Of a stretch of 42,696 bases of DNA, positions 37,504 to 42,495 are shown piece after piece. This DNA is from a virus. The notes under the pieces were generated by a model. It saw only the letters and a program-made list of their open reading frames with translations, did no database searches and was not told where the DNA came from. The DNA is taken from IMG/VR virus record IMGVR_UViG_3300007759_000008, positions 1 to 42,696 of that record; one strand, given 5' to 3'. Position 1 is the first letter of the stretch, and every line of letters starts with the position of its first letter. Made by a program: the position numbers and the translations under genes.

Positions 37504-37669
37504 TGATTGTCCACGTTGTAGCGATGAGGGTATCATTGTGTACCTTGAAGGAGCGGAGGAGGAGTCGTATAGGATAGTCGTTCCTTGGACTCTCATTGAG
37601 GAGACTATCTCCACGTTCGTCAGGGAGGCCGTAGAGGGCGCGAGTGAAGGTCCCTCCGATGAGTCGTGA
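37496..37669 (+). CDS. 57-residue protein with CPRC motif
   Basis: The ORF begins MIDDCPRCSDEG, with C5-x2-C8, and continues with an acidic helical region (LIEETISTFVREAVEGASEG). GGGAGG precedes the ATG by 9 bases and it overlaps both neighbours by 8 and 11 bases. A single CxxC knuckle may bind zinc as a dimer. Its size and overlaps support a real gene; function is unknown. Confidence 0.5.
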   Translation: MIDDCPRCSDEGIIVYLEGAEEESYRIVVPWTLIEETISTFVREAVEGASEGPSDES

Positions 37670-38669
37670 GTATCTTAGTTTTGATGATGTCTTAATTGAG
37701 CCTCAGCATTCTGCTGTGCGTAGCCGGAGTGATGTTAGCCTTAAGACAAAACTGTATGATGGGTTTGAGTTGGATCTCCCCATTATTGCTTCTAATATGG
37801 ATACTGTGTGTGAGTTGGATATGGCGATTGCGATGTCTGAGCTTGGCGGCTTGGGTGTGATTCATCGCAACTTGATTCATGCCACGCGTATTCATTGTAT
37901 ACGCCAGTTAACGAGCATGGGTTTGGCTTCTGCTGTGGCTATGGGTGTTAACGAATTGCGTCTTTCTCCTGTGAGGCGGTATATTGAGGAGGGTGTCCGG
38001 TACATTGTGTTGGATATTGCTCATGGAGATTCTGTTCATGCTTTAAAGGCTGTGGAACAATTGAGGAGCATGTCTGATAAGCACGGCGGGGCTGTTTGTA
38101 TCATTGGTGGCAATGTGGCTACTCCTGATGCTGTTGGCCGTATGGCTGATGCTGGTGCTCATTGTGTCAAGGTGGGGATCGGCCCGGGCGCAGCATGCTT
38201 GACGAGGATTAACACAGGGGTGGGTATACCTCAGCTGTCTGCCATTCTTGAGTGTTCTCATGCCGCAGATTTGCATGGCGTGGGGTGTATTGCTGATGGT
38301 GGTATGAAGACTCCGGGTGATATTGCTAAGGCTTTGGCTGCTGGTGCCGATGCTGTAATGCTTGGTGGAATGTTGGCTGGCACGTTTGAGTCTCCGGGTG
38401 ATGTTGTGGATATTGATGGCGAAAAGTTTAAAACTTACCGAGGAATGGCATCGAATGGTGCGGGATCCATGTATATTGAGGGTGCTGAGGGTTTTGTTAA
38501 GTATAGCGGCAAGGCTGGGGATGTAGTAAACGATATTTCTGACGGTTTGCGTAGCGCTTTTTCATATGTTGGGGCTAGTGACATGGCCGAGTACCACTCA
38601 AAAGCCCTTTTTGTGCGCATTTCTACGGCATCTATCCTCGAAAACGGCGCTCACGGTACTATTACATGA
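37659..38669 (+). CDS. IMP dehydrogenase / GMP reductase family enzyme
   Basis: 336 residues from ATG 37659 (GAAGG 8 bases upstream); GTG 37644 is also possible. [26 protein letters not shown] (catalytic C180, T182), [38 protein letters not shown] and YRGMAS are the signature segments of GuaB/GuaC. It has no CBS domains and the flap after YRGM is short, so it is closer in size to GMP reductase; which reaction it performs is unresolved. It adjusts purine nucleotide pools during infection. It is the last gene of this operon. Confidence 0.85.
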
Positions 38670-38951: not shown

Positions 38952-39977
38952 ATGACAGGTTGGGAATTTCCAACAGCAACAATTGAACTTGATCAGCTTA
39001 TGGGTGACCTTGGAAGCATTTCTAAGAACACTAAGCATCTTGAGTTTGAACTTGGCCGGTCTAAGTACCATGCCAAGACGAATACTATTACAACACCAAA
39101 TGATGAGAGCATTACGTTAACAGGCAGTAGTTTTACACAACTGTGCAATCTTATCGACGTTCCTGCTAGCTATGCGGGAAGGATGCCGGACACTTTGACC
39201 GATTTTACAGTTAATTACTTACTGACAGAGGGGCCTAGGCGCCCATACAACGCACTTGTGGACGATAAGGGGGTCGCTAGGTCTCTTATGCGCCCAGATT
39301 TGCCATATGTGCCACATGATGCTCTCTTGGGGGCAATTGTGGACTCGTTTGATGGTGAAGCACCCTTTGTTCACCGTTGGGGAGTCAATGATGGCAAATT
39401 TAACATCCAATTGCGCTCCCCTGAGTTGACATTTGAAGATCCCGGCGGTTCTGTGCTGTTTGGTGGTGTATCTGCCACATATGATGACAGTTGGAAGACA
39501 GCGCCAGTGTTTAAGACGTTCCTAAACCGGCTGGTTTGCGATAATGGAGCATCTGTAAACATTGATGGACGTAAATTTAGAGTAAATGGCTATAGTTCTG
39601 ATGGAGTTCTTGCTCAGGCGAGCGAATTCTCGTCCTTGGCCCTAGATCAGGTCAAGCAGATGGTAGATGGACTCATGGCTATGCAGCAAGACAAGATTCG
39701 TAACGCTGAATCTGCTGTTCGCAATATGTGTGTTCAGTACAGGCTGCCTAATAAGATTAGGGACTTGCTGATACGCTACTTGACAGATGAAGGCTATTTG
39801 GCTACTGTCTCTGATGGTATACCGTCTACAATGTATGATATTGTTAACCTTTTCACATATGTTGGCACTCACGACTTTACAATTTCTGCAGAGTACCGTG
39901 ATCTGCTGTGTGAGATTGGTGGCGGTGCAATGTTTGCCCACGATGCAACATGCGAGTCGTGCGGTAGTAGAGTCTAA
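38952..39977 (+). CDS. DUF932-like phage protein
   Basis: 341 residues. Segments include SITLTGSSFTQLCNLIDVPASYAGRMPDTL, VARSLMRPDLPYVPHDALLGAIVDSF, FKTFLNRLVCDNGASVNIDG and a helical region EFSSLALDQVKQMVDGLMAMQQDKIRNAES, in the order seen in DUF932 (phage/plasmid TIGR03299-like) proteins. It ends with a CESCGS motif. Function in that family is unknown, though it is frequent in phages and plasmids. It has its own promoter-like element and a strong AAGGAGG ribosome site, so it is probably well expressed. Confidence 0.65.
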   Translation: MTGWEFPTATIELDQLMGDLGSISKNTKHLEFELGRSKYHAKTNTITTPNDESITLTGSSFTQLCNLIDVPASYAGRMPDTLTDFTVNYLLTEGPRRPYNALVDDKGVARSLMRPDLPYVPHDALLGAIVDSFDGEAPFVHRWGVNDGKFNIQLRSPELTFEDPGGSVLFGGVSATYDDSWKTAPVFKTFLNRLVCDNGASVNIDGRKFRVNGYSSDGVLAQASEFSSLALDQVKQMVDGLMAMQQDKIRNAESAVRNMCVQYRLPNKIRDLLIRYLTDEGYLATVSDGIPSTMYDIVNLFTYVGTHDFTISAEYRDLLCEIGGGAMFAHDATCESCGSRV

Positions 39978-39988
39978 TAAAAGGAGGC

Positions 39989-40030
39989 GCTGTGTGCTGG
40001 CCTGAACGAGTCAGCACACAGCAACGTTTT
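39989..40030 (+). terminator. 11-bp hairpin with short T-run, or leader hairpin, before terS
   Basis: GCTGTGTGCTG (39989-39999) pairs perfectly with CAGCACACAGC (40012-40022) across a 12-base loop; TTTT follows at 40027-40030. It could be a partial intrinsic terminator. It also lies between AAAAGGAGG (39979-39987) and ATG 40032, so folding would bring that ribosome site to about 10 bases from the start codon. Confidence 0.65.
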
Positions 40031-40039
40031 AATGTCTGA
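39992..40039 (+). CDS. candidate 15-codon leader ORF
   Basis: GTG at 39992 lies 4 bases after AAAAGGAGG, and its frame (M-C-W-P-E-R-V-S-T-Q-Q-R-F-N-V) stops at TGA 40037-40039, overlapping the terminase small-subunit ATG at 40032. This layout would allow translational coupling. It is the only start with a good ribosome site in this gap. It may equally be coincidental, with the hairpin doing the work. Confidence 0.35.
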   Translation: MCWPERVSTQQRFNV

Positions 40040-40673
40040 GGAGATAGAAACTACTAGTAGCCAGCATACTATCGTTGATGAGTTAAACGATATCGAAGAA
40101 GCCGGTCTGTTATCGGTTAAGGGCTACAAGGTGTCTGAGATAGCCACTGTGATGGACATCTCGCCACAGCGTGTAAGAAAACACGTTAATGATTACAAGA
40201 GTCTTATCGACAAGAGGGCTCAAGATGATCCTTATTTTCTAGAGAAGGTGCAGTACAACACACTGCGTGCTCTAGAGGAGTTTGAACAGGTCTCTAAGGA
40301 GGCTTGGGAGACTGTGACCATAGCTACCGATCATGGTATGATCTCTGCGAGAGTTCAGGCATTAAAACTGGCTTCTGATGTTGCCTCTAAGAAGGCACAA
40401 TTACATCATTTGCTTGGTGGGAACAACGCTGATGTAGAATATGTTGCAAGAATGCAGCGGGCGGAGTCTGTCAATCAGATTCTGTCTAAGATCTTGCGCG
40501 ATACGGTGTCTCAATTCCCTGAGATAGCTTCTCAGGTGAGAGGTGAGCTTGCATTGGCCTTTGAGCTAATGGAGGCAAGCGAGGAGTTTGAAGACGCTAT
40601 GGATGATCCTAACACCATTGATGCTGATATAGTGGAAGATGATGAAGATGAGGAGGAACCGGAAGGCTTGTAG
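40032..40673 (+). CDS. terminase small subunit-like DNA-binding protein
   Basis: 213 residues. GYKVSEIATVMDISPQRVRKHVNDYKSL at about 31-60 is an HTH; the middle (about 70-150) is helical and could form the oligomer core; the C-terminus is very acidic (EDDEDEEEPEG). The position directly before the large terminase, and this HTH-plus-oligomer layout, fit a small terminase that recognises the packaging site. No ribosome site lies at normal distance from ATG; see the hairpin and leader ORF entries. Confidence 0.7.
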   Translation: MSEEIETTSSQHTIVDELNDIEEAGLLSVKGYKVSEIATVMDISPQRVRKHVNDYKSLIDKRAQDDPYFLEKVQYNTLRALEEFEQVSKEAWETVTIATDHGMISARVQALKLASDVASKKAQLHHLLGGNNADVEYVARMQRAESVNQILSKILRDTVSQFPEIASQVRGELALAFELMEASEEFEDAMDDPNTIDADIVEDDEDEEEPEGL

Positions 40674-40688
40674 GGAACTACATGCGCC

Positions 40689-40745
40689 CTATATAATGTC
40701 CTTTTTCTATTAAAGTCGTGGGGAAAGAAATCGACTCTATATAAT
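40689..40745 (+). promoter_or_regulatory. twin -10 elements before the large terminase gene
   Basis: The decamer CTATATAATG occurs at 40689-40698 and 40737-40746, each containing TATAAT. TTGTAG at 40668-40673 is a possible -35 for the first (18-base spacer). AGTCG (40714-40718) and CGACT (40732-40736) form an inverted repeat between them. The second TATAAT ends 19 bases before ATG 40765, leaving a leader of about 12 bases with a weak ribosome site. Confidence 0.5.
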
Positions 40746-40764
40746 GGTCAAAACCGGATAAAAG

Positions 40765-42495
40765 ATGAGTGAATTCTATGGTCTAAACGTTGAGTTTGAT
40801 GATCTTGATAAACTTTTAAGCCATGAGGAACTTGACATGGAGCCTGTTCCTCTTGACGTATTTGTAAGTGATCGTAAATACCTTGGTCTACCGCCATTGT
40901 CTGACATCCAAACTGAGATTGTTAAGATGAGTACGCAGGTATTTAATGTGGAAACGTTGAAGAAGCTTCATGGCGATAAGGAAGGGCAGCGTATATATGA
41001 TACATACACTCAAAACGAGGTAATCTGCCAACTTGGCAAGGGTTCTGGCAAGGACCATTGTGCTAGGATAACAATGGCCTACACCATCTATCTTATGCAT
41101 TGTCTACGAGATCCTCTTGGGTACTATGGTAAAGCAACTGGTGTGTATATTGATCTCCTGAACCTAGCTGTGAACGCACAGCAGGCTCAGAGGGTATTTT
41201 TTGAACCATTTAAGAACCTCCTTCTCTCGTCTCCGTGGTTCAACGAACAGGGCTTCGAACCAAGGGTATCAGAAATTTTCTTCTTTTCACGCCCCGTGCG
41301 CTGTTTTTCTGGTCACTCTGAGTCAGAGGGGTGGGAGGGGTATGAGGTAATGACTATCATCTTGGATGAGATCTCAGCCTTTAAGAGAGACTCTGAGCTG
41401 AAAGGTGATGTCAGATCTATGGGCTCTGCGTCTGCCATTTACAACATGAGTAAGTTGTCTGTGATGTCTCGCTTCCCTGAGGTCGGTAAAACTATCCTGT
41501 TGTCCTTCCCCCGTTATCGAGGAGACTTTATTCAACAGAGGTATGATTCTTCTATAGCTTTAGATGAGCCTAAGACATGGGCTATCAAGGCTGCTACTTG
41601 GGAGGTTAATCCCACGATTGAGCGCGAGCAGTTGGAGTCAGAATATATCCGCAATCCAATTGAGGCTAGAGCAAGGTTTGAATGTGAGCCTCCACATATG
41701 GAGGATGCATTCTTTAGGGATGCGGATTTGGTTAGGAATGCTTTCAACTTTGCTGAGGACCCCATAGAAGAAGATGGCTCATTCAAGTCTTGGTTTAATG
41801 GCAGTGATGATTTTACTAGGTTCATTCATGTCGATCTAGCTGTCAAGCGTGATCGTGCTGCATTGTCTATGGTGCACTGTCCCGGCATGAAGAGTATTAA
41901 CACTGGCCTTGGAACTGAGCAACTTCCGGTGCTTAATGTAGACTTGGTTTATTCATGGCAAGCACAGCCGGGTGCAGAGATTAACTTTAGTCAGATCAGA
42001 GCGATGATAGTGGACTTGTGTAGGAGATTCTCTGTCGCCATTGTAAGCTTTGATCAATGGCAGTCGGTAGAGATGATTCAGTCCCTGCGCGCAATGGGTA
42101 TTAATGCAGACTTTCATAGCGTCAAAAAGACAGACTACGATACGCTGATGACGGCTATCTATGATAAGAGATTGCGGGGGTATTGGAATGAGATCCTAGT
42201 TGAGGATGAACTATTGAAGCTTAAACTGCTCCGTGGTAACAAGATTGATCACCCTTCATCTGGTTCTAAAGATCTTGCTGATGCTGTTGCCGGGGCCGTG
42301 TTTCAGTCTGTGCAACACATGCAGATAGATCAAGAGGTTGAGATTGAGTTTGAGACATTCTCTCATGAGCTGTACGAAGATGAAGAAGATTCTGCGGAAC
42401 ATAGGGTTAAGAAGAACCTAACCGAGGATAGAAGCGAGTCTGAGATAGACGCTGGGATGCCAGATGAGATCCAATCTTGGCTTGACCTTGTTTAA
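40765..42495 (+). CDS. terminase large subunit
   Basis: 576 residues. The ATPase domain has Walker A GKGSGKD (91-97) and Walker B TIILDE (D201, E202), followed by a coupling-motif-like LLSFPRYRGDF. The nuclease domain has HVDLAVKRDRAALS (D357), VSFDQWQS and a final acidic SKDLADAVAGAVF, the RNase H-like set. The protein cuts concatemers and pumps DNA into the prohead. The C-terminal 40 residues are acidic and low complexity. Portal and capsid genes usually follow but are beyond the window. Confidence 0.93.
   Translation: MSEFYGLNVEFDDLDKLLSHEELDMEPVPLDVFVSDRKYLGLPPLSDIQTEIVKMSTQVFNVETLKKLHGDKEGQRIYDTYTQNEVICQLGKGSGKDHCARITMAYTIYLMHCLRDPLGYYGKATGVYIDLLNLAVNAQQAQRVFFEPFKNLLLSSPWFNEQGFEPRVSEIFFFSRPVRCFSGHSESEGWEGYEVMTIILDEISAFKRDSELKGDVRSMGSASAIYNMSKLSVMSRFPEVGKTILLSFPRYRGDFIQQRYDSSIALDEPKTWAIKAATWEVNPTIEREQLESEYIRNPIEARARFECEPPHMEDAFFRDADLVRNAFNFAEDPIEEDGSFKSWFNGSDDFTRFIHVDLAVKRDRAALSMVHCPGMKSINTGLGTEQLPVLNVDLVYSWQAQPGAEINFSQIRAMIVDLCRRFSVAIVSFDQWQSVEMIQSLRAMGINADFHSVKKTDYDTLMTAIYDKRLRGYWNEILVEDELLKLKLLRGNKIDHPSSGSKDLADAVAGAVFQSVQHMQIDQEVEIEFETFSHELYEDEEDSAEHRVKKNLTEDRSESEIDAGMPDEIQSWLDLV

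What the first reader, a model, noticed from the sequence alone, without database searches (positions are those of the whole stretch)
39979..40039. Ribosome site, hairpin and embedded mini-ORF control the terminase small-subunit start
AAAAGGAGG lies 44 bases before the ATG, too far to act directly. Between them is a perfect 11-bp hairpin which, when folded, reduces the gap to about 10 bases. In phage T4 gene 25 an mRNA structure plays this role. The same sequence also contains a GTG-started 15-codon ORF, ideally spaced from AAAAGGAGG, whose stop overlaps the ATG, an arrangement for translational coupling. The hairpin with TTTT could also be a leaky terminator. All three would tie terminase dose to RNA structure.
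Basis: partly seen in the sequence, partly recalled or inferred. Interest (0 to 1): 0.7.

Follow-up and report, generated by a model that had tools for sequence, protein, structure and literature searches.

The report
Hairpin-bridged ribosome site for phage packaging gene
In a group of uncultivated, probably aquatic phages, a folded RNA hairpin sits between the ribosome-docking sequence and the start of a DNA-packaging gene and appears to pull the two together, a trick so far known mainly from phage T4, and here backed by matching mutations in relatives and by a relative that has deleted the hairpin.

Summary
A strong Shine-Dalgarno (SD, 39979-39987) lies 44 nt before the terS ATG (40032). Between them is a 13-bp hairpin (39989-40022) that leaves 10 nt when folded. 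Ten or more further distinct relatives carry the same SD-hairpin-start anatomy. Linear gaps are 44-48 nt, or 80 nt where the loop has grown; folded gaps are 3-14 nt. Six of 12 core pairs show changes on both sides (0 of 500 shuffles). Departures from Watson-Crick are almost all G-U on the + strand, so the selected structure is the + strand RNA. No hairpin-bearing relative has another SD near the start codon. One sister relative (L098) has no hairpin, and its SD lies 12 nt from ATG. I conclude that this is a hairpin-bridged ("split" or accommodated) ribosome-binding site of the T4 gene 25/38 kind, not homologous to T4. The mini-ORF is only weakly supported: frames and starts differ, and two of ten relatives lack it. 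The terminator reading fails for most members because the U-tracts are poor. A DNA-level packaging or operator site is disfavoured. Function is inferred; no experiment exists. It is a well-supported new member of a known, rarely documented kind.

The parts
38952..39977 (+). upstream 341-aa gene (phrog_1362, unknown function); its stop codon TAA (39975-39977) lies next to the SD; in most relatives stop and SD overlap (TAAGGAGG)
39979..39987 (+). Shine-Dalgarno AAAAGGAGG, -11.6 kcal/mol with the anti-SD
39989..40022 (+). hairpin: 13-bp stem 39989-40001 / 40010-40022, 8-nt loop; conserved with covariation in relatives
40023..40031 (+). single-stranded spacer AACGTTTTA; with 39988 it gives the 10-nt folded SD-start gap
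40032..40673 (+). terS (213 aa; terminase small subunit by position, weak HTH and profile match to an annotated TerS)
39992..40039 (+). GTG mini-ORF of 15 codons in the 5' arm and beyond; weakly supported, probably incidental
40765..42495 (+). terL, terminase large subunit

Best explanation
It is a hairpin-bridged (split, 'accommodated') ribosome-binding site for terS. The 30S subunit binds the strong SD at the stop codon of the upstream gene. The intervening RNA is folded into a 13-17 bp hairpin that stays folded and protrudes, which collapses the 44-48 nt (once 80 nt) linear gap to about 5-14 nt and puts the terS start codon in the P site. Because SD and upstream stop codon touch, ribosomes finishing the upstream gene are probably handed to terS. 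Shown here: sequence, fold prediction, conservation, covariation, absence of any alternative SD, and a hairpin-less sister with direct spacing. Inferred: that the ribosome uses it this way, that it raises terS translation, and the coupling to the upstream gene.
For: The same anatomy is in every relative with at least 70% terS identity whose upstream region is complete, except the L097/L098 pair. Pairing: 95.5% of core cells form standard pairs, 6 of 12 pairs have both-sided changes, 11 such cells, 0/500 shuffles reach this, and registers slid by 1-3 nt show 0-1 such pairs. Over whole stems: 155 Watson-Crick, 19 G-U, 1 A-C, 1 other of 176 cells (the L014 register there is one column off and is corrected). 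All 12 sequences fold better as + strand than as - strand. Anti-SD energy in the last 20 nt before terS is -2.8 to +1.2 kcal/mol in hairpin-bearing relatives but -11.9 in hairpin-less L098, where the SD is 12 nt from ATG. TerL tree: L097/L098 are sister to hairpin-bearing L014 (97/98), so a loss is the simplest reading. L006/L302 have an extra hairpin inside the loop (gap 80 nt) but keep the outer stem and a short folded gap. The element is unique in the contigs scanned, and the covariance model finds it in the terS leader with, among independent sites, one weak hit elsewhere. Precedent: T4 gene 38 (22 to 5 nt) and gene 25 (27 to 11 nt), with mutational and probing evidence (PMC3014915); a ribosome accommodating a long folded hairpin in E. 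coli thrS (PMC3936740).
Against: No experiment. Only about eight independent lineages; shuffles do not correct for shared ancestry. The conserved 5' arm (TGTGCTGGC) varies less than pairing alone requires. Folded gaps of 11-14 nt in some relatives are longer than optimal. The SD is predicted to be partly paired with neighbouring sequence (unpaired probability 0.01-0.44), so accessibility may depend on upstream translation.
Confidence: 0.8

Rival explanations
1. Leader mini-ORF with termination-reinitiation: ribosomes start at a GTG/ATG in the 5' arm, melt the hairpin, stop at the terS start and reinitiate there.
For: In 8 of 10 distinct relatives a start codon 4-9 nt after the SD opens a frame that stops within 6 nt of the terS start; null mean 4.2, P 0.017 without phylogenetic correction. 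Several more distant relatives start terS by overlap with an upstream gene.
Against: The start used differs (GTG at 4 or 6 nt, ATG at 5, TTG at 8), peptides are not conserved, and in L006 every candidate ends 20 nt or more before ATG while in L007 the candidates run in frame into terS or far past it. After merging close relatives the excess is slight. It does not explain why the stem is kept by compensatory change, nor L098.
Confidence: 0.1
2. Leaky intrinsic terminator or attenuator between the upstream gene and terS.
For: GC-rich stem with some U behind it; L015 has seven U and L007/L014 are fair. The same stem with an ATTTTT tail is found in an unrelated phage contig (L313).
Against: Tail score 0.45-1.8 in window, L004, L006, L008 and L013; not called by the terminator scan; would leave terS without any SD; does not predict SD placement or the L098 spacing.
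Confidence: 0.05
3. DNA-level inverted repeat: terminase pac/cos recognition site or operator.
For: Position just before terS; moderately conserved 5' arm (alignment A4).
Against: Departures from perfect symmetry are G-U on the + strand (19 against 1 A-C), which matters only for RNA; absent from L097/L098; arm sequence not repeated in the genome beyond chance.
Confidence: 0.05

Closest known systems
Phage T4 gene 25 (gene 26-25 junction), accommodated/split ribosome-binding site (PMC3014915 and its references 108, 109)
   Same: SD far from AUG, hairpin between them brings it to about 10-11 nt; intercistronic; present in a close phage group and absent from more distant relatives
   Different: T4 gap 27 nt; here 44-48 (80) nt with 13-17 bp stems; different gene (terS), unrelated phages; hairpin-less sister with direct SD spacing; no experimental proof here
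Phage T4 gene 38 translation start (PMC3014915)
   Same: hairpin shortens SD-AUG distance (22 to 5 nt)
   Different: smaller gap; unrelated gene and phage
E. coli thrS split ribosome-binding site (PMC3936740)
   Same: ribosome accommodates a long folded hairpin within its binding region
   Different: as described in the source, hairpin domain 2 lies within a leader of several ribosome-binding domains; it is a cellular gene with no relation to the site here

Membership tests
Hairpin-bridged (split/accommodated) ribosome-binding site, T4 gene 25/38 kind | strong SD too far from the start codon, no other SD nearby | tested here: met
   gap 44 nt in the window; near-start anti-SD energy +1.2 against -11.6 kcal/mol at the distal SD
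Hairpin-bridged (split/accommodated) ribosome-binding site, T4 gene 25/38 kind | hairpin between SD and start that reduces the gap to a functional distance | tested here: met
   folded gap 10 nt in window, 3-14 nt in relatives
Hairpin-bridged (split/accommodated) ribosome-binding site, T4 gene 25/38 kind | structure conserved in relatives | tested here: met
   6 of 12 pairs with both-sided changes, 0/500 shuffles
Hairpin-bridged (split/accommodated) ribosome-binding site, T4 gene 25/38 kind | structure shown by probing and stem disruption lowers translation | not testable with these tools
   needs reporters, toeprinting or DMS probing
Intrinsic terminator | stable stem followed directly by a U-tract | tested here: not met
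   not called in the window; tail score 0.45 in window, fair only in L015, L007, L014
Leader-peptide (mini-ORF) translational coupling | conserved short ORF ending at the downstream start | tested here: inconclusive
   8 of 10 have some ORF ending near ATG, but start, spacing and peptide differ; L006 and L007 lack it
Known Rfam RNA family | match above gathering score | tested here: not met
   no match in the window
Terminase small subunit (identity of the downstream gene) | HTH protein encoded just before terL, related to annotated TerS | tested here: met
   profile comparison with TunaTartare gp86 E 6e-5, probability 64%; weak phrog_7067 matches in 8 of 10 members; structure prediction of low confidence

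The most novel reading that the evidence does not exclude
A two-state switch: with the hairpin folded, the SD serves terS directly; when it is melted (for instance by ribosomes leaving the upstream gene), the same SD serves a start codon in the 5' arm whose short frame ends at the terS start, so one SD feeds two mutually exclusive start routes and sets terminase dose.
Probability: 0.1. Interest if true: 0.7.

Novelty: new member of a known kind. Interest (0 to 1): 0.5.

Why it matters
Hairpins that bring a distant SD to its start codon are textbook curiosities resting largely on T4 genes 25 and 38. This is a phage group unrelated to T4 with a longer hairpin, compensatory evolution, an enlarged-loop variant and a natural deletion that keeps the SD-start spacing. 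Together these give a ready-made mutant series for testing how large a folded insert a 30S subunit can accommodate between SD and start codon. It also shows that start-site prediction limited to 20 nt upstream would miss this gene's SD.

Tried and rejected
DNA similarity search of the region in sequenced phages: no match. TerS protein search in the same collection: no match. Rfam: none. A broad DNA pattern (GGAGG plus stem arm) in viral contigs gave mostly uninformative chance hits; a stricter hairpin pattern found clade members plus two unrelated contigs. N-terminal extension of TerS from a start in the stem: a continuous in-frame extension exists only in L007, and the window frame has no ATG/GTG/TTG upstream. 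Leaderless start: no TATAAT-like element just before 40032, though one lies just before terS in the more distant L019-L031 group. Structure prediction of TerS was too poor (pLDDT 59.6) for a fold search, and no solved structure matched by sequence. A scan for other SD-hairpin-start sites in the window and five related contigs found nothing comparable. The single bacterial-genome hit (L302, Flavobacteriales MAG, 3-kb contig) is identical to L006 in the leader and does not establish a host.

Full report
What is there. The window is a 42,696-base virus record from an uncultivated phage; its TerL is about 38% identical to those of Streptomyces phages of the Faust/TunaTartare type, and a near-identical 61.9-kb contig exists. 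At its right end lie, on the + strand, an IMP dehydrogenase gene, a 341-aa gene of unknown function (38952-39977, phrog_1362), the gene in question (40032-40673) and terL (40765-42495). The gene in question is best read as terS. It precedes terL, has a weak HTH match, weak matches to a terminase small-subunit family in 8 of 10 relatives, and a co-linear profile match (E 6e-5, probability 64%) to the annotated small subunit of TunaTartare.

The observation. SD AAAAGGAGG 39979-39987; hairpin 39989-40022 with a 13-bp stem (11 perfect, then G-U and C-G) and 8-nt loop; 9-nt spacer; ATG 40032. The linear gap is 44 nt and the folded gap 10 nt. Folding of the 101-nt region beats 200 of 200 shuffles.

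Relatives. Protein searches of viral contigs with terS, terL and the upstream gene and of bacterial genomes gave one close clade (terS at least 70% identical, same upstream gene) and a wider family (50-63%). In the close clade, 12 distinct leaders, the window included, have SD, hairpin, short spacer and start. In most of them the stop codon of the upstream gene overlaps the SD (TAAGGAGG). Linear gaps are 44-48 nt, and 80 nt in L006 (L302 is identical), where the loop contains a further hairpin. Folded gaps are 3-14 nt (the 3 is L006, about 8 if its outermost pairs open). Stems have 13-17 bp in the simple cases. The more distant family has no such hairpin. Its terS often overlaps the upstream gene, a glycosyltransferase-like gene in some cases (my reading of the sequence), or has a TATAAT box just before ATG.

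Covariation. A structural alignment of 12 core pairs in 11 distinct sequences has 95.5% standard pairs, 6 pairs with both-sided changes and 11 such cells. None of 500 shuffles reaches these values, and registers slid by 1-3 nt have 0-1 such pairs. The alignment was arranged by hand on the stem arms with a constant filler loop, so it leans towards the structure. Examples: U-A to C-G in L009; G-C to A-U in L006/L008/L013; three double changes in L014. Over whole stems there are 155 Watson-Crick cells, 19 G-U and 1 A-C out of 176 (L014 was placed one column off there and is corrected). All 12 leaders fold better on the + than on the - strand. This asymmetry is expected for an RNA on the + strand and not for a DNA palindrome. 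Caveat: shuffles ignore shared ancestry, and the sequences fall into about eight lineages.

Natural controls. L098/L300 has the same upstream gene and a 76% identical terS but no hairpin; its SD is 12 nt from ATG. Its sister L097/L298/L299 carries a small nuclease-like gene at that place. In the TerL tree this pair is sister to hairpin-bearing L014 (support 97/98), so one loss is the simplest history. Anti-SD pairing in the last 20 nt is -11.9 kcal/mol in L098 but only -2.8 to +1.2 in all hairpin-bearing relatives, where the strong SD (-10.3 to -12.9) is always on the far side of the hairpin. The 80-nt gap of L006 with a conserved outer stem is a second control: linear distance is free to vary, folded distance much less so.

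Uniqueness. A scan of the window and five related contigs for SD, long stem and start found no comparable site besides terS. A covariance model finds the element in the terS leader; besides the reverse strand of the same hairpin, the only other notable hit is a terminator-like hairpin in an unrelated contig, L313, E 0.05.

Mechanism. Best supported is a hairpin-bridged ribosome-binding site. The review PMC3014915 describes T4 gene 38 (22 to 5 nt) and gene 25 (27 to 11 nt), supported by mutants, and for gene 25 by reporters and DMS probing, and notes that only close T-even phages have the gene 25 structure. PMC3936740 describes the ribosome accommodating a long folded hairpin in thrS. The present site works like these but is not homologous to them and has a longer hairpin. 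Since SD and upstream stop codon touch, I infer translational hand-over from the 341-aa gene; that step is not shown.

The mini-ORF. In 8 of 10 leaders some start codon 4-9 nt after the SD opens a frame that ends within 6 nt of the terS start, against 4.2 expected (P 0.017, no correction for ancestry). The start codon, its spacing and the peptide all differ, and L006 and L007 lack it. I treat it as probably incidental, with a 10% chance of a real second route.

Terminator and DNA site. The U-tract score is poor in five of ten leaders including the window, the scan did not call it, and a terminator would leave terS with no SD. A pac/cos or operator role is disfavoured by strand asymmetry and by absence in L097/L098.

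Verdict. Real, conserved, RNA-level. A new member of a known but rarely documented kind, with an unusually informative set of relatives. Function awaits experiment.

Noticed in passing
L298:3524-3906 and L299 (contigs 3300020421_003165, 3300030376_007210): A small nuclease-like gene (my reading of the sequence) with its own SD is inserted between the 341-aa gene and terS, exactly where other relatives have the hairpin.
   Followed up: partly
L313:2689-2725: An unrelated phage contig has the same 12-bp stem (GTGCTGGCTAGG/CCTAGCCAGCAC) followed by ATTTTT between two virion-type genes, terminator-like; covariance model E 0.05, probably chance similarity.
   Followed up: partly
window 40690-40750; L019-L031 just before terS: TATATAAT/TATAAT boxes upstream of terL in the window, and 6-10 nt before the terS ATG in a more distant group, possibly phage promoters with very short leaders.
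   Followed up: no
L107, L113, L151 upstream of terS: In more distant relatives a glycosyltransferase-like gene ends at or inside the start of terS, so coupling of terS to an upstream gene recurs with unrelated partners.
   Followed up: partly
window 37644-38669: Phage-encoded IMP dehydrogenase (Pfam IMPDH, E 2e-94).
   Followed up: no
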